From Hymenobacter chitinivorans DSM 11115 (GTDB taxonomy: Bacteria; Bacteroidota; Bacteroidia; Cytophagales; Hymenobacteraceae): a stretch of DNA of 64,000 nt. The notes below the pieces were generated by a model. It was not told where the DNA came from and did not search any database. It worked only from the letters and a program-made list of their open reading frames with translations. The position numbers were made by a program, and so were the translations under genes. Positions 3,740 to 16,800 of the stretch are shown piece after piece. The stretch lies in NCBI RefSeq assembly GCF_002797555.1, contig NZ_PGFA01000001.1:1116001-1180000 (forward strand). The letters are read 5' to 3'. Positions within the stretch are counted from its first letter, which is position 1. Each line of letters starts with the position of its first letter.

Positions 3740-4873
3740 CTAAAAAGCCTCGCCGATGGTCAGGTAGAAGCCACTTGATTCGTGGCCCAGGGCGTAGTCG
3801 AGGCGGAGGTTGAGCTGGTCGCGCCGGTTGAGCACGAAGCGCAGTCCGCCCCCGTACGCCGCTTTCGGGCTGTCAAGGCGCAGCAGGGCCCCGGAGTCGC
3901 CCAGAGCGCCCACGCCGCCGAAGGCCACCGCGCCCAGCCGCCGGTACGCGGCCAGCCGCAGCTCGGCCTGCACCAGGCCCGCGTGCTGGTCGCGGTAGCG
4001 GCCCTCGTAGTAGCCGCGCAGGCGCCGGGTGCCGCCCAGCAACGACAACGCATTAAATGGCGCCGTGCCAGCCGTGAAACTAGCGAAGTAGTTCAACGCC
4101 AGGATGGCGCGCGGGTGCAGCCGGTGGTACGACGACACGTCGGCCACGTAGCGACTGAAGCGGGTGGTGGGCCCGTCGGGGGCCGTGGCCCGGTTGCGGT
4201 GCAGGTAGGTCAGGTCGGCCACCACGCCTTTGCTGGGAAAGAAAACCTTGTCGCGCGAGTCGAAAAACAACCCCAGGCCGCCCCCGCGCAGGCGGCTGCC
4301 CCGGCCCCCGGGCACGGTGCCGCTGCCCAGCAGCCCGCCGGCGGCCGTGCTGGTCACGTCGTACTCCTCGTACTGGTAGCGCAGGCCGGCGTAAAGCTTG
4401 CCCCGGCGCAATGCCGGCCCTACCCGCCGAAACGCGTTGAGGCGCACCCGGGGGAAATTGACGCCGTACAGCTCCCGGGGTACTTCCTGCTGGCCCACGC
4501 CGTAGAAATAATAGTTGTAGCGGTAGTAGCCGGCCTCGCCGTAGGCGTAGTAGGTATTGCGGGCGTAAAAGAGCTGAAACGGCACATACAGCAGCAGCTG
4601 GCGGTTTTGGGTGTAGGCCGCGCCCAGCGTGAGCTGCGAGGGCCGGGCCTCGGCAAAGGCGGAATCCCGCCGAAACCGCAGCGTGGCCGTCAGGGCGGCC
4701 CCGTAGGCCAGGCGGGTTTCGGGGGTGTAGTACACCAGCGGCAGCGGAATCAACGTCAGGCGCCGCCGCGGCAGACTGTCGGGTGGGGCCAGCGCGGTGG
4801 CACCGAGCAGGGCGGCGGTGAGAAGCAGCATCAGAACGAGTAATTTGCCAACCCTACGAAGTGCGGTGGGCAT
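3740..4873 (-). CDS. BamA/TamA-family outer membrane barrel protein
   Basis: 377 residues with a signal peptide (hydrophobic core LLVLMLLLTAALLGA) and a barrel of alternating strands ending in Phe (LTIGEAF). The central motifs GLGLFFDSRD and LGGTRRLRGYYEGRYRD match the surface-antigen (D15) barrel signature. No POTRA domains are present, so it is a barrel-only member rather than BamA itself. It probably sits in the outer membrane in export or surface assembly. It is 63 bp upstream of the glycosyltransferase on the same strand and could be cotranscribed. Confidence 0.8.
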   Translation of the reverse strand: MPTALRRVGKLLVLMLLLTAALLGATALAPPDSLPRRRLTLIPLPLVYYTPETRLAYGAALTATLRFRRDSAFAEARPSQLTLGAAYTQNRQLLLYVPFQLFYARNTYYAYGEAGYYRYNYYFYGVGQQEVPRELYGVNFPRVRLNAFRRVGPALRRGKLYAGLRYQYEEYDVTSTAAGGLLGSGTVPGGRGSRLRGGGLGLFFDSRDKVFFPSKGVVADLTYLHRNRATAPDGPTTRFSRYVADVSSYHRLHPRAILALNYFASFTAGTAPFNALSLLGGTRRLRGYYEGRYRDQHAGLVQAELRLAAYRRLGAVAFGGVGALGDSGALLRLDSPKAAYGGGLRFVLNRRDQLNLRLDYALGHESSGFYLTIGEAF

Positions 4874-4939
4874 AGAGTTTGCCCCGCGCCAATCTTTCCC
4901 CCGGCCCGGCCCCGTATATGCCGGCTAACGCCCCTCCTC

Positions 4940-5737
4940 ATGAGCTTCTCCCGCCTGCCCCGCCTGCTGACCACCGCCGCCCTGGCCGCCCTTGTCGGCG
5001 GCGCCGCTCCCTTGCCCGCCCGGGCCGCTGCCGCCGCCAAAGTCGCCCCGGCAGCGGCTACCGTTGACCACGGCGCCTTCGATAAGCTGCTGAAAAAGTA
5101 CGTCACCGAAAAGGGCCTGGTCAACTACAAAGCCTGGAAGGCCGACCAGGGCCCGCTCAACCAGTACCTGGCCCAGCTGAGCAAGAATCCGCCGGCGGCC
5201 GGCGCCAGTAAGGCCGAGCAGATGGCCTTCTGGATCAACGCCTACAACGCCTACACCATCCGCCTGATTCTGGACCACTACCCGCTGCAAAGCATCAAGG
5301 ATATCGGCACCAAAATCCAGATTCCGTTCGTGACCACGCCCTGGGCCGCGAAGTTTTTCAGCATCGGGGGCGAGAAGATGAGCCTCGACAACATCGAGCA
5401 CGGCATCCTGCGCAAGAAGTACAACGACCCGCGCATTCACTTCGCCCTGGTCTGCGCCTCTATTTCCTGCCCCCGCCTGCGCACCGAGGCCTACACCGCC
5501 GCCAAGCTCGACGACCAGCTCGACGACCAGGGCCGGGACTTTCTGAACAACCCGGCCAAAAACAAGCCCGGCAAAACCAGCGCCCAGCTCTCCAAGTACT
5601 TCGACTGGTACAAGGGCGACTGGTCGGAAAACGGGCAGTCGGTGACGAGCTGGGTAAACAAGTACGCCACCACCAAGCTCGATAAAAACGCCGCCATCAG
5701 CTTTCTGGACTACAACTGGCAGCTCAATGAGCAGTAA
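4940..5737 (+). CDS. Secreted DUF547 domain protein
   Basis: 265 residues. A signal peptide is evident (LLTTAALAALVGG, then PARA-A). The DUF547 core is clear: AFWINAYNAYTI near residue 95, then FALVCASISCPRL with two conserved cysteines. The family is of unknown biochemical function and occurs widely in bacteria and plants. The start at 4940 gives a good signal peptide. It is followed 42 bp downstream by another exported protein on the same strand. The gap to the divergent barrel gene is only 66 bp, so the two promoters must be close or overlapping. Confidence 0.85.
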   Translation: MSFSRLPRLLTTAALAALVGGAAPLPARAAAAAKVAPAAATVDHGAFDKLLKKYVTEKGLVNYKAWKADQGPLNQYLAQLSKNPPAAGASKAEQMAFWINAYNAYTIRLILDHYPLQSIKDIGTKIQIPFVTTPWAAKFFSIGGEKMSLDNIEHGILRKKYNDPRIHFALVCASISCPRLRTEAYTAAKLDDQLDDQGRDFLNNPAKNKPGKTSAQLSKYFDWYKGDWSENGQSVTSWVNKYATTKLDKNAAISFLDYNWQLNEQ

Positions 5738-10815: not shown

Positions 10816-12153
10816 ATGCCCCAGCTCCTGCCGCCCGTTTCCAAGCCCCGTTTTGGCGAGGCCCTGCGCTTCTGGCTGAAGCTGGGTTTCATCAGTTTCG
10901 GCGGCCCGGCCGGCCAGATTGCCATCATGCACACGGTGCTGGTCGAGGAAAAGCGCTGGATTTCGGACGCCAAGTTTCTGCACGCCCTCAACTACTGCAT
11001 GCTGCTGCCCGGTCCCGAGGCTCAGCAATTGGCCACCTACATCGGGTGGCTGCTGCACGGCCGCCGGGGTGGCTTGGCGGCCGGCGTGTTGTTTGTGCTG
11101 CCTTCGGTGTTTATTCTGCTGGCTCTGAGCCTGCTCTACGTTACGGTGGGCACGCTGCCGGCCCTGCAGGGCGTATTTGCGGGCCTCAAGCCCGCCGTGG
11201 TGGCCATTATTCTGCTGGCTCTGGTCAAGATTGGGCAGAAGTCCTTGCTGGGGCCGCTGCACTACGCCGTGGCGGCGGCCAGCTTCGTCGGTATTTTCTG
11301 GCTGAATATTCCCTTTCCGCTGCTCATCGTGGGCGCAGCCCTGGTGGCGCTGCTGGTGCAGCGGTTCTTCCCGGCCCCGGCCGCCACGGCCGCCGCCCAG
11401 GCCCGGGCCGAGCTGGCCGAGGAAGGCTACTTCCTGACCACCCGCTCGGTAGTGTCCGGCACGGGCTTCAGCGCCCGGCGCCTGGTGGGGCAACTGCTGC
11501 TGACGCTGGGACTCTGGGCGCTACCACTGCTGGTGCTGGCTTTCACCGGGCCCGACTTACCGTTCTGGCAGCACCTGAGCGGGTTTTTCACCAAGGCCGC
11601 CCTGGTCACCTTCGGCGGGGCCTACGCCGTGCTGCCCTACGTGGCCCAGGTGAGCGTGGCTCAGCTGCACTGGCTTACCCAGGGGCAGATGCTCGACGGC
11701 CTGGCCCTGGGTGAAACCACCCCTGGGCCCCTGATTATGGTGCTGGCCTTCGTGGGCTTCATGGGCGGCTACACCCACTTCGGCGGCTCCTTGGCCCTGG
11801 CCGCCCTGGGGTTGCTGCTGACGACTTACTACACTTTTTTGCCCTGCTTTTTCTTTATCCTGGCCGGGGCGCCCATCATTGAGCGCACCCAGCACAACGC
11901 CCGCCTTAAGGCCGTGCTCAGCATTATCACCGCCGCCGTAGTGGGCGTGGTCCTGAACCTGGCCGTGTACCTGGGCCAGGCCGTGCTGTGGCCTGCTGCC
12001 GGGCCCGGCCTGCACTTGCACTGGCCGAGTCTGGTGTGGCTGCTGGTGTCTTTGCTGGCCCTGTACCGCTTCAAGCTCAACATGATTCTCTGGATTGGCA
12101 TCAGCGCCGCCATCGGCCTGCTGTATTACGCCCTGCTGCCTTTCCGGGGCTAA
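10816..12153 (+). CDS. chrA: Chromate efflux transporter ChrA
   Basis: 445 residues, the full length of the two-domain CHR family. The first half begins with FGEALRFWLKLGFISFGGPAGQIA, a signature of ChrA, followed by MLLPGPEAQQLA; the second half repeats it as FFTKAALVTFGGAYAVLPYVA and LGETTPGPLIM. About ten to twelve membrane helices are visible. Known members export chromate from the cytoplasm and give resistance. Its placement directly after a ChrB-AraC fusion and before a DUF1259 gene makes a coherent chromate-resistance operon. Confidence 0.92.
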   Translation: MPQLLPPVSKPRFGEALRFWLKLGFISFGGPAGQIAIMHTVLVEEKRWISDAKFLHALNYCMLLPGPEAQQLATYIGWLLHGRRGGLAAGVLFVLPSVFILLALSLLYVTVGTLPALQGVFAGLKPAVVAIILLALVKIGQKSLLGPLHYAVAAASFVGIFWLNIPFPLLIVGAALVALLVQRFFPAPAATAAAQARAELAEEGYFLTTRSVVSGTGFSARRLVGQLLLTLGLWALPLLVLAFTGPDLPFWQHLSGFFTKAALVTFGGAYAVLPYVAQVSVAQLHWLTQGQMLDGLALGETTPGPLIMVLAFVGFMGGYTHFGGSLALAALGLLLTTYYTFLPCFFFILAGAPIIERTQHNARLKAVLSIITAAVVGVVLNLAVYLGQAVLWPAAGPGLHLHWPSLVWLLVSLLALYRFKLNMILWIGISAAIGLLYYALLPFRG

Positions 12154-12166
12154 CCCACCGACTCCG

Positions 12167-13195
12167 ATGACTGACCCCAACTTCCAGTTTTCCCGCCGCC
12201 GCTGGCTCAGAACTACGGCCCTGGCTACGGTGCCGGTGCTGCTGGGCCCCTGGGCCGCCCCGGCGGGAGTAGCCCCGCGGGCCGCGGCCAAAACGCCCCC
12301 GCTGCGTGCGGCCGATATCAACGCCATTGAGGCGGCGTTGGGCAAGAAAGGCAGCTACGTCGAGGCCCAGGCCACGCACACCACGGCCCTGCCCCGCAAC
12401 GACTTAAAGGTGAGTATCAAAGGCGAGGCCGTCCCGATTTCCTTCGGCTTCGGCGGCTGGGTAGCCATCAAGCACACGCTGGACGGCACAACGGCCATGC
12501 TGATGAGCGACACGGTGCTGCTGCAAGAGGAAGTGGCGCCGCTCATGGACGCGGCCCACGCCAACGGGCTGGAAATCGGGGCCGTGCACAACCACTTTTT
12601 CTACGAGGAGCCCCGCATCGTCTACATGCACCTGCACGGCATGGGCACGCCGGCCGAGCTGGCCCGCAAGTTTGCCGCTACCCTGAAAAACTCCCGGCTG
12701 CTGCCCGCCAACCAGCCCGCTCCGGCCCCGGCCGGCGGCGCGGCCACCACTGCCCCGCCCAGCGCCGCCCCAGCTACGGCCAAAGAGCAGTTCGAGCTGC
12801 CCGCCCTGGATAAAGTCGTCGGCGCGACGGGCGTCGTGAACGGGCCAACCTACAAGTACACTATCGGCCGGGCCGACTTGCAGGTGCTCATGATGAACAC
12901 CGACATGACGGCCGCCATGGGGCTGAATTCCTGGGCTGCCTTGGCCGGCCAGCAGGCCCACGCCCACATTGCCGGCGACATTGCCATGCTGGAGCCCGAA
13001 GTCAACCCGGTGATTCGGGCGCTGCGGGCCCACGGACTGGAAGTCGTGGCCGTGCACAACCACATGCTCTTCGACCAGCCCCGGATGGTGTTTTTGCACT
13101 ACTACGGCCGGGGCCCGGCCGCACAGCTGGTCGCCGGCTTCCGCGCCGCCCTCGACCAGCTCGGCCCGGGCCAGTCTGAGCACATGAAGCATTAG
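12167..13195 (+). CDS. Exported DUF1259 protein with two tandem domains (chromate operon)
   Basis: 342 residues. The N-terminus SRRRWLRTTALATVP resembles a twin-arginine signal followed by a hydrophobic segment. Two DUF1259 copies follow: one ends AHANGLEIGAVHNHFF with MHLHGMG, the other RAHGLEVVAVHNHMLF with LHYYGRG, separated by a Pro/Ala-rich linker around residue 190. The His-rich VHNHxxF motifs could bind metal. DUF1259 proteins of unknown function often accompany chrA. The gene starts 13 bp after the chrA stop and so belongs to the operon. A perfect palindromic terminator follows. Confidence 0.85.
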   Translation: MTDPNFQFSRRRWLRTTALATVPVLLGPWAAPAGVAPRAAAKTPPLRAADINAIEAALGKKGSYVEAQATHTTALPRNDLKVSIKGEAVPISFGFGGWVAIKHTLDGTTAMLMSDTVLLQEEVAPLMDAAHANGLEIGAVHNHFFYEEPRIVYMHLHGMGTPAELARKFAATLKNSRLLPANQPAPAPAGGAATTAPPSAAPATAKEQFELPALDKVVGATGVVNGPTYKYTIGRADLQVLMMNTDMTAAMGLNSWAALAGQQAHAHIAGDIAMLEPEVNPVIRALRAHGLEVVAVHNHMLFDQPRMVFLHYYGRGPAAQLVAGFRAALDQLGPGQSEHMKH

Positions 13196-13223
13196 GCGCG
13201 GCGTAAACCGCCCTGAAAAAACG

Positions 13224-13261
13224 AAACGGGCCCTTTCCGCCGCGGCGGAAAGGGCCCGTTT
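13224..13261. terminator. Perfect 38-bp palindrome, bidirectional terminator
   Basis: The 19-base arms starting AAACGGGCCC are exact reverse complements with no spacer, followed by TTTC on the plus strand and preceded by a run of A at 13215-13221 that serves as a U-tract on the minus strand. It lies between the convergent DUF1259 and YciF-like genes and probably stops both. Confidence 0.85.
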
Positions 13262-13279
13262 TTCTTCACTCAACCCCGG

Positions 13280-13774
13280 TTACTCGGCCTTGGCGTTGAG
13301 GTAGTTCTTGGCCAGGTCGTTGAGCTTGGTGTCGGTCAGCTGCTCTTCGTCCAGGGTTTGCTGCAGCAGCTCGGCGGCGTCGGTGTGGCCCAGGCGCTGG
13401 GCAAAGTGGGCCGCCGTGCCGTAGCCCGATATTTCGTAGTGCTCGATGCGCTGGGCCGCCGCAATCAGGGCCGCGTCCATTACCTCCTCGGTGGCATTTT
13501 CCGACATGGTTTCCTGACCTTCGGCAATGAGACCTTCCATGGCCTTGCAGGTGTGCCCGCTCAGGTCGAGGTCCAGGGCCTTGCCAATCTTTTCGAGGCG
13601 GGCCACCTGGTTTTCCGTTTCGCGCAGGTGCTTCTCGAAGCCGCGCCGCAGCCGCCCGTCCTTGGCCGTTTCGGCCATCAGGGGCAGAGCTTTGACCAGC
13701 TGCTTCTCGGCGCTGTAAAGGTCTTTGAGCTGCATTTCAAACAGGTCGTCGAGCGTTTCCAGTTTATCGAACAT
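13280..13774 (-). CDS. YciE/YciF-like ferritin-fold protein (DUF892)
   Basis: 164 residues. The four-helix DUF892 pattern is clear: LFEMQLKDLYSAEKQLVKALP at the N-terminus, HLRETENQVARLEKI, then RIEHYEISGYGTAAHFA and a final helix with DEEQLTDTKLNDLA. The spaced Glu and His residues suit a ferritin-like di-metal site. Members are stress-associated proteins of uncertain function, often induced with osmotic or general stress genes. Stand-alone gene, convergent with the chromate operon. Confidence 0.88.
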   Translation of the reverse strand: MFDKLETLDDLFEMQLKDLYSAEKQLVKALPLMAETAKDGRLRRGFEKHLRETENQVARLEKIGKALDLDLSGHTCKAMEGLIAEGQETMSENATEEVMDAALIAAAQRIEHYEISGYGTAAHFAQRLGHTDAAELLQQTLDEEQLTDTKLNDLAKNYLNAKAE

Positions 13775-14057
13775 AAGACAATGGGTGAGAAGGGTGAAAA
13801 ATTGCTTGGCTCTACTACCCTACGAAAGTGCCCCCGGAGCGTTCCGGACGAGCTTTTAGCGTCAAATGCCTAAGCTTAACCGTACCGGGCGCCACCGGCC
13901 GCGCCCGAAAACTTCGGCGGGTCTGGCTTGTCTTACAGGGCAACATCGGCCGCGGGCCCGCGGTAAAAGACGACCAACCGCCTGCCGCCCGCTGGTCCGC
14001 CGCGGCGCTGCTTTCCCACTCTCTTTATTGACTACTGACTACTCCCTTCCGACTACC

Positions 14058-15083
14058 ATGGAATACCGCCAACTAGGGGCCTCGGGCCTGCGCATCCCCG
14101 TGCTGAGTTTTGGTACCGCCACCTTCGGGGGCGGCAACGAGTTTTTCAAAGCCTGGGGCAGCACCCAGGTCGATGAAGCCCGCCACCTGATTGATATCTG
14201 CCTCGAAGCCGGCGTCAACCTCTTCGACACGGCCAACGGCTACTCCGACGGGGCCGCCGAAACCATCCTGGGCCAAACCCTGGCCGGCCGCCGCCACGAG
14301 GTGCTGATTTCCACCAAAGCCACTTTCCCCACCGGCCCCGGGGCCAACGACTACGGCTCCTCCCGCCACCACCTCATCCGGGCCTGCGACGACAGTCTGC
14401 GCCGCCTCGGCACCGACTACATCGACATCTACCACATGCACGGCTTCGACGCCCACACGCCCGTCGACGAAACCCTGCGCACCCTCGATACCCTGATTCA
14501 GAGCGGCAAGGTGCGCTACATTGCCTGCTCCAACTTCTCGGGCTGGCATTTGATGAAGTCCTTGTCGGTATCGGAGCGGCACGGCTGGGCGCGCTACGTG
14601 GGCCACCAGGCCTATTATTCCCTGGCCGCCCGCGAGTTTGAGTGGGAGCTGCTGCCCCTGGGCCTCGACCAGGGCGTGGGCACCATCGTCTGGAGCCCGT
14701 TGTCGGCCGGCTTGCTCTCGGGCAAGTTTCGGCGGGGCCAGCCCGTGCCCGAAAGCAGCCGCCTGGCCCAGGGTGGGGGCCAGGGCCCGCAGGTGCCCGA
14801 CGAGCTGCTGTTCCGCATCGTGGATGCCCTGGACGAAGTGGCGGCTGAAACCGGCAAAACCGTGGCCCAAGTAGCGTTAAACTGGCTTTTGCAGCGCCCC
14901 ACAGTGGTCAACATCGTGGTGGGGGCCCGCAACGAGGAGCAGCTACGCCAGAACCTGGCCGCCGTGGGCTGGAACCTCACCCCCGAGCAAGTTGCCCGCC
15001 TCGACGCCGCCAGCGCCACCGAGCCGATTTACCCCTACTGGCACCAGCGCCGCTTCCCGATGCTGGGCCACACCGGGATTTAA
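14058..15083 (+). CDS. Aldo/keto reductase
   Basis: 341 residues forming a typical AKR TIM barrel. NLFDTANGYSDGAAE contains the catalytic Asp and Tyr, ISTKATFP the catalytic Lys, and IYHMHGFD the His region. The C-terminal VNIVVGARNEEQLRQNL is the NADPH-binding part. It would reduce aldehydes or ketones in the cytosol using NADPH; the substrate is unknown. I start at the ATG at 14058 because the sequence from there (MEYRQLGASGLRIP) is the usual AKR N-terminus; a longer frame upstream is Arg/Pro-rich and unlike the family. Confidence 0.9.
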   Translation: MEYRQLGASGLRIPVLSFGTATFGGGNEFFKAWGSTQVDEARHLIDICLEAGVNLFDTANGYSDGAAETILGQTLAGRRHEVLISTKATFPTGPGANDYGSSRHHLIRACDDSLRRLGTDYIDIYHMHGFDAHTPVDETLRTLDTLIQSGKVRYIACSNFSGWHLMKSLSVSERHGWARYVGHQAYYSLAAREFEWELLPLGLDQGVGTIVWSPLSAGLLSGKFRRGQPVPESSRLAQGGGQGPQVPDELLFRIVDALDEVAAETGKTVAQVALNWLLQRPTVVNIVVGARNEEQLRQNLAAVGWNLTPEQVARLDAASATEPIYPYWHQRRFPMLGHTGI

Positions 15084-15211
15084 GGTGCTCAAGTGCTAAT
15101 GTGGTGGAATGTGAGAACTGTGTGGAATGTGTCATTGCGAGGCGCAGCCGTGGCACCCGAAGGACAGCGCAGCTAATCCGTCCTCTGCGCAGATAGTCCC
15201 ATCCTTTAACT

Positions 15212-15249
15212 AGAAAGCCCTTTCCCGTACCAACGGGAAAGGGCTTTCT
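15212..15249 (+). terminator. Hairpin after the aldo/keto reductase
   Basis: AGAAAGCCCTTTCCCGT and its exact complement are separated by ACCA. The AAAGCCCTTT core is the same as in the long repeat elements, and the preceding DNA at 15121-15170 (GTCATTGCGAGGC, CGAAGGACAG) may be a decayed copy of their arm. There is no clean T-run after the stem. Confidence 0.6.
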
Positions 15250-15353
15250 GCGTGCAAGAATCGTGGTTTGCATAAGCAGGAGAGGCTTTCAAAAAGCGAA
15301 GCCGCCGAGCTACGCCAGCTTCATTTTACCAGTTAATTTGTTGCTGACTTTAT

Positions 15354-15475
15354 GTATACAAACCAGTTTAATAGCACTGATTGTATACTCTAATTAGGTA
15401 TGATGTTTTTTATATCATAGATAAATGTATACCTCCCATTGGTATACATTAGCGGTTTATGCTTCAATTGTATAC
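15354..15475. promoter_or_regulatory. AT-rich island with five GTATAC palindromes
   Basis: GTATAC occurs at 15354, 15383, 15427, 15442 and 15470, mostly in the context TTGTATAC or its complement. A small hairpin TATGAT-N9-ATCATA lies at 15399-15419. The line 15361-15420 has 44 A/T of 60, against very GC-rich surroundings. The island lies between the aldo/keto reductase and the HipA-like gene and contains no gene. Likely reading: operator array and promoter for the HipA-like/DUF3037 pair. The direct sequence facts are certain; the function is inference. Confidence 0.65.
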
Positions 15476-15633
15476 CTGTTCATTATTGGTTAGTACCAAC
15501 AATCAAAGCGGCCTGGGGCAGCTTTCCAGCTGGCACTTTACTCGCATACGGTGGCCGCGGAGGCTGTTTGGCCCGTAAACTGCCCCGATTCCCTTTTCTT
15601 TGTCGGGCCTAAGTCCGCTCCACTGTCTGCTCT

Positions 15634-16434
15634 ATGTCCGAAACCATTGCCCCGCTCCGCACCGTGGACGTGACGCGCTACGTCACGCCACTGCGCGAGG
15701 GCGGCTCTTTGCCGGCCCTCGTCGAGGCCGACGATACCTTTATGTACGTGGTCAAGTTCCGGGGCGCGGGCCAGGGCATCAAGGCCCTGATTGCCGAGCT
15801 GGTCGTGGGTGAAATAGCCCGGGTGCTGGGCTTACGCGTGCCCGAACTGGTGTTCTGTGAGCTCGACGTAGCCTTTGGCCGCTCCGAGCCCGACGAGGAA
15901 ATCCAGGACCTCTTGCAAGCCAGCACCGGCCAAAACCTGGGCTTGCACTACCTCAGCGGCGCCATCACCTTCGATTCGCTGGTCACGACCATCGAGCCGC
16001 GGCTGGCCTCGCAAATCGTGTGGCTCGATGCCCTGACCCTGAACGTGGACCGCACCGCCCGCAACACTAACCTGCTGATGTGGCACAAGGAGTTGTGGCT
16101 CATCGACCACGGCGCGGCCCTCTACGTGCACCACGCCGGCCCGGGCTGGGCCACGCCGCGCCCCCGGCCGTTTCCGCAGGTAAAAGACCACGTGCTGCTG
16201 CCCCAGGCCGCCGAGCTGCGGGCCGTGGATGCCGAGTACCGCCCCCGGCTCACGACCCAGGTGCTGCACGATATTCTGGCCCTGGTGCCCGACGCCTGGC
16301 TGGAAGAGGCTGCCGCCGGCGATGCTACGGCCGCAGAGCAGCGCGCCAATTACGTCGGCTTTCTGGCCCACCGCCTGGCCGCATCCGAAACCTTTGTTCA
16401 GGAAGCCGAAGATGCCCGAAAAGCACTTGTTTGA
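15634..16434 (+). CDS. HipA-like kinase domain protein
   Basis: 266 residues, shorter than classical HipA (about 440). The kinase core is visible: YVVKFRGAGQGIK with a likely nucleotide-binding Lys, ALTLNVDRTARNTNLLM giving the catalytic Asp139 and Asn144, and LWLIDHGAAL giving the metal-binding Asp158. This matches the stand-alone HipA_2 type rather than HipBA; there is no HipB-like antitoxin beside it. Classical HipA phosphorylates a tRNA synthetase and causes growth arrest, but the target of this group is unknown. It overlaps the next gene by 23 bp, so the two are made together. The AT-rich GTATAC region lies upstream. Confidence 0.8.
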   Translation: MSETIAPLRTVDVTRYVTPLREGGSLPALVEADDTFMYVVKFRGAGQGIKALIAELVVGEIARVLGLRVPELVFCELDVAFGRSEPDEEIQDLLQASTGQNLGLHYLSGAITFDSLVTTIEPRLASQIVWLDALTLNVDRTARNTNLLMWHKELWLIDHGAALYVHHAGPGWATPRPRPFPQVKDHVLLPQAAELRAVDAEYRPRLTTQVLHDILALVPDAWLEEAAAGDATAAEQRANYVGFLAHRLAASETFVQEAEDARKALV

Positions 16435-16798
16435 GTACGCCGTGCTGCGCGTAGTGCCCCGCGTGGAGCGCGAAGAGTTTCTGAACGTCGGCGTGATTCT
16501 CTACTGCCGGGCCCAGGGCTTTCTGCAAACCCGCTGCCACCTGCCCGAAGCCCGCCTGCAAGCCTTTACCGGCGCCGAGCTGGACTTCGACGAGCTGCGT
16601 CAGCGCCTGCAGGCCTTCGAGAAAATCTGCCGGGGCAAGCCCGAAGGCGGCACCATCGGCCGTCTGGCCCTGGCCGAGCGGTTCCGCTGGCTCACGGCCA
16701 CCCGTAGCACCATCGTCCAAACCTCGCCCACCCACCCCGGCCTCTGCGAAAACGCCGCCGCTACGCTAGAGCAGCTCTACCAGCAGCTGGTGGGGTGA
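16412..16798 (+). CDS. DUF3037 protein, partner of the HipA-like kinase
   Basis: 128 residues from the ATG at 16412, inside the end of the kinase gene. The start MPEKHLFEYAVLRVVPRVER followed by EFLNVGVILYC is the DUF3037 signature. No membrane segment or signal peptide is visible; it should be cytosolic. DUF3037 proteins are commonly found next to HipA_2-type kinases (recollection of the families), which suggests a two-protein module, but whether it is an antitoxin, substrate or scaffold is unknown. It is followed by repeat element C. Confidence 0.8.
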   Translation: MPEKHLFEYAVLRVVPRVEREEFLNVGVILYCRAQGFLQTRCHLPEARLQAFTGAELDFDELRQRLQAFEKICRGKPEGGTIGRLALAERFRWLTATRSTIVQTSPTHPGLCENAAATLEQLYQQLVG

Positions 16799-16800
16799 TT

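What the first reader, a model, noticed from the sequence alone, without database searches (positions are those of the whole stretch)
15354..16798. HipA-like kinase/DUF3037 pair behind an AT-rich GTATAC array
Five GTATAC palindromes within 122 bp lie in a sharply AT-rich island in otherwise GC-rich DNA, directly in front of a HipA_2-type kinase overlapping a DUF3037 gene. There is no HipB antitoxin. The base composition suggests acquired DNA or a special regulatory site, and the kinase-DUF3037 module has no assigned function that I know of. It could be a toxin/antitoxin-like or phage-defence module.
Basis: partly seen in the sequence, partly recalled or inferred. Interest (0 to 1): 0.65.

Follow-up and report, generated by a model that had tools for sequence, protein, structure and literature searches.

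The report
Core kinase gene pair, borrowed switch array
A kinase gene pair that looked like a mobile toxin or virus-defence module is a standard gene pair of this bacterial genus, and the repeated DNA motif in front of it belongs to a separate family of DNA-binding proteins that seem to have scattered their own landing sites around the genome.

Summary
In detail: five exact GTATAC sites plus one decayed site lie in 122 bp of AT-rich DNA, before a HipA_2 kinase gene that overlaps a DUF3037 gene by 23 nt, with no HipB. Pair and array are two separate things. (1) The pair is not accessory DNA. The kinase is in 119 of 120 genomes of the genus (DUF3037 beside it in all 32 loci read), and similar overlapping pairs recur in other families. 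The PADLOC candidate defence pair PDC-M66 (published as DS-6/HipAD) is a sister form; one full copy was seen as an extra in another genome of the genus. (2) The array is one of at least five in this genome, at unrelated genes. The same inverted-dyad layout stands before most close members of an expanded family of XRE-type HTH proteins, with a core that differs by paralogue (GTATACC, GTTTACC, TTCTACC, GCCTACC and others). In orthologous arrays cores are kept while spacers diverge, and at one shared locus the core differs between species. I read the array as operators of the genome's own HTH protein. It stands before the kinase in 3 of 32 genomes examined. No binding or regulation is shown; all is sequence evidence.

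The parts
15212..15249 (.). GC-rich hairpin (AGAAAGCCCTTTCCCGT-ACCA-ACGGGAAAGGGCTTTCT), probable terminator of the upstream gene
   Evidence: sequence; role is inference
15354..15475 (.). array of GTATAC sites (15354, 15383, 15427, 15442, 15470 exact; 15398 GTATGA decayed), spacing 29/15/29/15/28; read as operator dyads for an XRE-type HTH protein
   Evidence: against G015: cores 31 of 36 identical, spacers 30 of 86, no gaps (Fisher p 2.7e-7)
15427..15447 (.). best-kept dyad: GTATACC-TCCCATT-GGTATAC
   Evidence: in 49 sites of 21 array loci T stands before GTATAC in 36 and C after it in 36
15572..15602 (+). probable core promoter of the pair (CCCGTAAACTGCC...TTTTCTTTG), kept in close relatives without the array
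   Evidence: assignment as promoter is inference
15634..16434 (+). HipA_2 kinase, 266 aa
   Evidence: PF20613 E 8e-15; glycine loop, catalytic N-x-D-R-T/S..N-x-N and I-D-H/N-G motifs in 73 of 73 rows, lysine motif in 72 of 73 (8 of the 73 rows repeat a gene already counted)
16412..16798 (+). DUF3037 protein, 128 aa, no C-terminal extension, overlaps the kinase gene by 23 nt
   Evidence: PF11236 E 6e-48; the same 23-nt overlap in 21 of 33 pairs from other families

Best explanation
Two separate things stand side by side. (a) The HipA_2-DUF3037 pair is an old, mostly vertically inherited core module of this genus and of many other Bacteroidota: a small HipA-type kinase, probably translationally coupled to a one-domain DUF3037 partner that most likely binds it and keeps it in check. 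(b) The GTATAC array is a multi-operator site. Each dyad GTATACC-N5..7-GGTATAC would be bound by a dimer of the genome's own XRE-type HTH protein (G000:C4:403799-404410). Dyads repeat every 43-44 bp, about four helical turns, so the bound dimers face the same side and can act together. The HTH gene has degenerate sites of the same type before itself (self-control), and further arrays lie upstream of a handful of other genes. In this species and two others of those examined, an array stands 135-300 bp upstream of the kinase gene and probably tunes its transcription. Shown: sequence anatomy, conservation, co-occurrence. Inferred: binding, control, antitoxin role.
For: Core status: 119 of 120 genomes of the genus, 114 of 114 good ones; an unnamed genus of another family, 88 of 150, 85 of 124 good ones; the kinase tree needs 17 changes of family label against a least of 15, shuffled mean 30.9. 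Array: same kind of array at unrelated genes. TACC-N3..8-GGTA together with GGTA-N24..32-TACC within 260 bp upstream: 24 of 30 close HTH relatives, 0 of 21 far ones, 11 of 244 other genes; 9 of those 11 lie in loci fetched for an array or HTH gene, the other 2 are the arrays at argS. Eight genomes judged by eye to hold arrays all have a close HTH protein (16 of 120 have one; cut-off and judgement made after seeing both lists, so the p of 1.5e-8 is only a guide). Arrays abut HTH genes in G005, G014, G022, G039, G046, G065, G117. Core word goes with recognition-helix letters: GCCTACC with GFVTH in 5 of 5 (two of the words read by eye). A second core, TTCTACC, repeats the pattern in the own genome: at its HTH gene plus two distant loci, reversed control 0 in 120 genomes.
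Against: No binding or expression data. The array is upstream of the pair in only 3 of 32 genomes examined and is missing in G014, whose kinase is 94% identical. Dyad gaps vary by 1-2 bp, and one own array has spacing 24/29, which a rigid dimer would not readily accept. The own HTH gene has a weak array by test: 7-mer score 3, shuffles as high in 6 of 60; dyad pattern 0 short, 1 long. For G015 the 7-mer score fails (51 of 60), though the dyad pattern is there. G014 has a GTTTACC array at argS, but among its HTH genes that I read none has that core, and its HTH gene next to a GTATAC array is broken. Kinase identity to G014 (94%) exceeds ArgS identity (87%), so exchange within the genus is possible. 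The kinase is missing from 39 of 124 good genomes of the second genus.
Confidence: 0.62

Rival explanations
1. The arrays are selfish or passively spreading palindromic repeats (like REP/BIME elements); the HTH genes merely carry them and the array before the kinase does nothing.
For: Recently made arrays are near-identical tandem hairpins (own C1:3181857-3182026; G065 C36, C55, C70). An array-bearing stretch is present or absent between close relatives (550 against 95 bp before the kinase). Positions are scattered.
Against: Cores are kept and spacers lost in an orthologous array (31 of 36 against 30 of 86), which calls for selection on the cores. The transposase family known for REP elements (Y1, PF01797; the link to REP is recalled) gives no hit at E <= 0.001 in G014, G015, G039, G046, which have arrays; it does hit in G000, G005, G022, G065.
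Confidence: 0.22
2. The pair is a phage-defence system of the PDC-M66/DS-6/HipAD type, with the array as its own control region.
For: Both proteins hit the PADLOC models. A related pair protects E. coli against phage Bas51; there the kinase is needed and loss of DUF3037 is toxic (PMC12548924, passages). DS-6 needs a predicted catalytic residue of its kinase (PMC13092281, passages).
Against: Hits are weak (76 and 41 bits, the second model covered over 3-128 of 281), while an extra copy in another genome of the genus scores 363 and 366 bits over nearly full length. The kinase is core, not patchy, and DUF3037 lacks the C-terminal part. The array does not travel with the pair.
Confidence: 0.2
3. 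The array is a CRISPR-like or other guide array with short repeats and variable spacers.
For: Regular repeat/spacer spacing, spacers that differ strongly between orthologous arrays.
Against: Repeats are only 6-7 bp; spacers within an array can be near-copies of each other (G065); arrays are tied to HTH genes. No cas or other effector search was made.
Confidence: 0.04

Closest known systems
PDC-M66 / DS-6 / HipAD (HipA-like kinase + DUF3037)
   Same: HipA_2 kinase gene followed by a DUF3037 gene, no HipB
   Different: Here DUF3037 is 128 aa with no C-terminal extension (283 aa in the extra copy L317), the genes overlap by 23 nt (4 nt in L317), and the kinase is core in the genus rather than patchy
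HipBA and HipBST toxin-antitoxin kinases (mBio 2021 survey, PMC8262856, passages read)
   Same: HipA-type kinase core; as in HipBST the presumed inhibitor is not HipB
   Different: No adjacent HTH gene. That survey does not name DUF3037 (0 occurrences) or Bacteroidetes (0 in the main text)
XRE-type autoregulators with operator dyads before their own gene
   Same: HTH_31/HTH_3 type domain, inverted dyads upstream of the gene; the higher-order XRE binding reported in PMC12204516 (search listing only) is a possible parallel
   Different: Long arrays, many paralogues per genome, different cores among them, and extra arrays far from the gene
Bacteroidetes LexA-like regulators (PMC8565304, passages read)
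   Same: Operators that diverge together with the regulator
   Different: CTAA-N5-TTAG or GGA-N5-TCC sites of an SOS regulon; other cores, and no arrays are mentioned in the passages read
REP/BIME elements with Y1 (RAYT) transposases (recalled)
   Same: Intergenic arrays of alternating palindromes
   Different: Four array-bearing genomes have no Y1 hit; the linked gene is an HTH protein

Membership tests
PDC-M66 / DS-6 / HipAD | HipA_2 kinase with intact catalytic motifs | tested here: met
   three motifs in 73 of 73 rows, the lysine motif in 72 of 73 (8 rows are repeats)
PDC-M66 / DS-6 / HipAD | DUF3037 gene directly downstream | tested here: met
PDC-M66 / DS-6 / HipAD | second protein goes on after DUF3037 (PADLOC model of 281 positions; DUF1829 in DS-6) | tested here: not met
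   128 aa; matches 3-128 of 281; extra copy L317 matches 1-279 of 281
PDC-M66 / DS-6 / HipAD | patchy, accessory distribution | tested here: not met
   119 of 120 genomes of the genus
PDC-M66 / DS-6 / HipAD | protects against phage | not testable with these tools
   needs plating assays
HipBA | adjacent HipB antitoxin gene | tested here: not met
   ORF list of 12000-20000, ORFs of 80 aa or more
HipBST | partner has the HipS / HipA N-subdomain fold | tested here: inconclusive
   DUF3037 model pLDDT 66.9 from 2 sequences; no significant Foldseek match, best VIA Z 3.0
XRE-type autoregulated operator system | HTH domain of the XRE kind in the linked protein | tested here: met
   HTH_31 and HTH_3 above cut-off for P0005, just below for P0004
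XRE-type autoregulated operator system | inverted dyads upstream of the HTH gene itself | tested here: met
   24 of 30 close relatives; the own GTATACC-type gene is weak: 0 short, 1 long, score 3
XRE-type autoregulated operator system | protein binds the dyads | not testable with these tools
   needs binding assay
REP/BIME with RAYT | Y1 transposase in array-bearing genomes | tested here: not met
   none at E <= 0.001 in G014, G015, G039, G046; present in G000, G005, G022, G065

The most novel reading that the evidence does not exclude
Hymenobacter carries an expanded family of XRE-type HTH proteins, many of which have evolved their own operator word (NNNTACC dyads) in an array before their own gene and have spread copies of that array to distant intergenic sites. 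Regulator and word change together, so that at one conserved place (upstream of argS) the word differs between species. The core HipA_2-DUF3037 kinase has been drawn into such a network in at least two separate branches of the genus.
Probability: 0.45. Interest if true: 0.78.

Novelty: new variant of a known kind. Interest (0 to 1): 0.6.

Why it matters
If true, it gives a natural series of regulator-operator pairs with many cores in one genus, good material for how DNA-recognition words change and how operator arrays spread. It also separates a core, probably housekeeping HipA_2-DUF3037 kinase from its defence sister HipAD (the same PADLOC models match both, with very different scores), and asks what such a kinase does in ordinary cells.

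Tried and rejected
Array as part of the kinase module: rejected. REP/Y1 transposase as the arrays' partner: not borne out. Conserved neighbours of the pair: none in 3 or more of 40 loci apart from the two genes (ORFs of 90 aa or more, E 1e-8). Sequence relatives with a solved structure: none significant for either protein. Fold of DUF3037: modest model, no meaningful match; a HipS-like fold was not seen, which excludes nothing. Fold of the kinase: model too poor to use (pLDDT 39.6). DUF3037 in viral contigs: none confirmed. Papers: DUF3037 in 3 papers, one of them a plant paper, PDC-M66 in 1, HipAD in 13, 1 relevant, GTATAC with Bacteroidetes in 37, 20 listed, none relevant by title or start of abstract, Hymenobacter with palindromic in 9, none on these arrays by title, other term sets. 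I saw no description of the HTH family or the arrays; only these searches support that.

Dropped rows and choices made late: (35 of 120 genomes with a match) I set aside by eye matches of two repeated coding-like words (GGTACACxCGCCAGG..., GGTCCACGGCC...) and single odd matches before counting 8 array genomes, and I did so after seeing the HTH hits; G015 has arrays but no match to that pattern. The 16 genomes with a close HTH protein are those with a best E under 1e-25, a break chosen by eye. In one search at most 25 candidates per genome were scored, so counts are lower bounds. In one search a few high 7-mers are low-complexity (AAAAAAA, ATATATA). In one search the tree had 43 kinases: 10 of the 30 genus loci and 33 from elsewhere. 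would miss arrays with other cores.

Full report
Observation. Five exact GTATAC sites lie in 15354-15475 in DNA of GC 0.34. A decayed site at 15398 makes the spacing 29, 15, 29, 15, 28. The kinase and DUF3037 assignments are right and the genes overlap by 23 nt.

The pair is core. A search of 120 genomes of the genus with the kinase finds it in 119, and in 114 of 114 good assemblies, nearly always once. In all 32 genus loci that I read (30, one, one of G065) DUF3037 follows the kinase. DUF3037 of this kind is in 69 of 395 genomes drawn from the phylum, 33 of 170 genera. In an unnamed genus of another family the kinase is in 88 of 150 genomes (85 of 124 good ones), so it is not universal there. 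In 33 pairs from other families the overlap is 23 nt in 21, other short overlaps or gaps in 12, and DUF3037 is 119-148 aa, mostly 127. No other gene is shared by 3 or more of 40 loci, which include 6 loci with extra copies. The kinase tree of 43 sequences needs 17 changes of family label, least possible 15, shuffled mean 30.9. Against strict vertical descent: kinase identity to G014 is 94% but ArgS identity only 87%. Catalytic motifs are intact.

Relation to defence systems. The window proteins hit the PADLOC candidates PDC-M66A and M66B at 76 and 41 bits, the second only over 3-128 of 281. An extra pair in another genome of the same genus (L317: 272 and 283 aa) hits them at 363 and 366 bits over nearly full length. 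Weak extra kinase hits occur in 6 genomes (G047, G053, G055, G084, G089, G095); only L317, of G055, was run against PADLOC. So the true PDC-M66 form looks like a rare extra in this genus and the window pair like its core sister. In the literature, the retron-Sda1 operon's kinase is needed for defence against Bas51 and loss of DUF3037 is toxic (PMC12548924, passages); DS-6, also called HipAD, needs a predicted catalytic residue of its kinase and has DUF1829 on the second protein (PMC13092281, passages). By analogy DUF3037 here most likely restrains the kinase; that is inference.

The array is a dispersed family. Arrays of like spacing (13-15, 24, 28-30 bp, or their sums) lie at four other places of the own genome: C1:114027, C1:3214768, C3:391615 and C4:213504, near different genes. 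In the genus, exact GTATAC triplets occur in 11 of 120 genomes, not all of them true arrays; reversed control triplets occur in 5. Some array places are shared between species: at a CDF-like transporter gene (own, G005, G015), at argS (own, G015, G039), near an HTH gene (G005, G014, G039) (gene names by eye except ArgS and HTH). Where an array is orthologous, cores stay and spacers go: before the kinase, own against G015, 31 of 36 core letters and 30 of 86 spacer letters agree without a gap (p 2.7e-7). At argS four species (own, G015, G039, G005) have GTATACC cores, while G046 and G014 have GTTTACC cores in the same place and G036 has no such array.

The array before the kinase is optional. 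Of 32 upstream stretches examined for these words, 3 have it: own, G015 (partly decayed) and G065. G014 has 95 bp between the upstream gene and the kinase, the own genome 550 bp, and the promoter-like stretch near the gene remains. In G065 one of four exact GTATAC arrays stands directly upstream of the pair.

The partner protein. Arrays abut genes of an XRE-type HTH protein in G005, G014 (broken gene) and G022, G065, and by coordinates in G039, G046, G117. The family is in 56 of 120 genomes, often in many copies; 13 matches in the own genome. Upstream of 51 distinct members I asked for a 7-mer and its reverse complement at least 4 times in 260 bp: 33 of 51, against 17 of 129 control genes, 9 of those being array places and 2 of these 9 HTH genes themselves. 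A stricter dyad pattern gives 24 of 30 close members (46% identity or more), 0 of 21 far ones, 11 of 244 controls. Far members seem by eye to have other palindromes, which I did not test further. Core words differ by member: GTATACC, GTTTACC, TTCTACC, GCCTACC, GTCTACC, CCCTACC, GTTACC. Recognition-helix letters go with the word, for example GFVTH with GCCTACC in 5 of 5, from G022, G036, G015, G059, G065; this is not corrected for kinship, and other words are less clear-cut. The eight genomes judged by eye to have arrays all hold a close HTH member, present in 16 of 120 (p 1.5e-8; kinship not corrected, classes set after the fact).

Generality. A search with the TCTACC word finds, in the own genome, the array before its HTH gene at C4:403485-403654 and two distant arrays at C1:3181857-3182026 and C2:770160-770253, plus a GTCTACC array at C6:82480; the reversed control is 0 in all 120 genomes. 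In the freshest arrays the long interval is itself, by eye, a hairpin with a stem of about 14 bp, which suggests how arrays start before decaying to their cores.

Mechanism. I propose that dimers of the HTH protein sit on the short dyads, 43-44 bp apart, and act together to control the HTH gene and the genes next to dispersed arrays, the kinase pair among them here. Binding, cooperativity and the sense of control are not shown. Weak points are the variable dyad gap, the weak array before the own HTH gene, and the GTTTACC array of G014 without a known partner.

Noticed in passing
window 16799-17080: Long imperfect inverted repeat behind DUF3037 (arms with TTAGTTGTTAGTTGTT... and TCTGTCATCCTGAGC); a like TCATCCTGAGC/GAAGGACCT stretch is seen near argS in several genomes.
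   Followed up: partly
L317 (G055), also hits in G047, G053, G084, G089, G095: Extra HipA_2 kinases in a few genomes of the genus; L317 is a full-length PDC-M66 pair in a genome that also has the core kinase.
   Followed up: partly
L440, G014:C1:1464327-1464939: HTH gene next to a GTATAC array is broken by stops in G014, which also lacks the array before the kinase.
   Followed up: no
L433, G000:C6:82479-82542: GTAGAC-core array in the own genome that matches the word upstream of another own HTH gene (C1:1097133, L428).
   Followed up: partly
L130, Peribacillus glennii, 4865-4970: AT-rich GTATAC cluster with spacing 44, 13, 29, 13, as in Hymenobacter arrays, in a distant phylum.
   Followed up: no
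L167, L171, L180, L201, L209, L213, L214, L216: Several viral contigs share a GTATAC cluster with spacing 18, 15, 29.
   Followed up: no
L246, G099:C305: Seven GTATAC sites 41-42 bp apart in a tandem repeat, between two genes.
   Followed up: no
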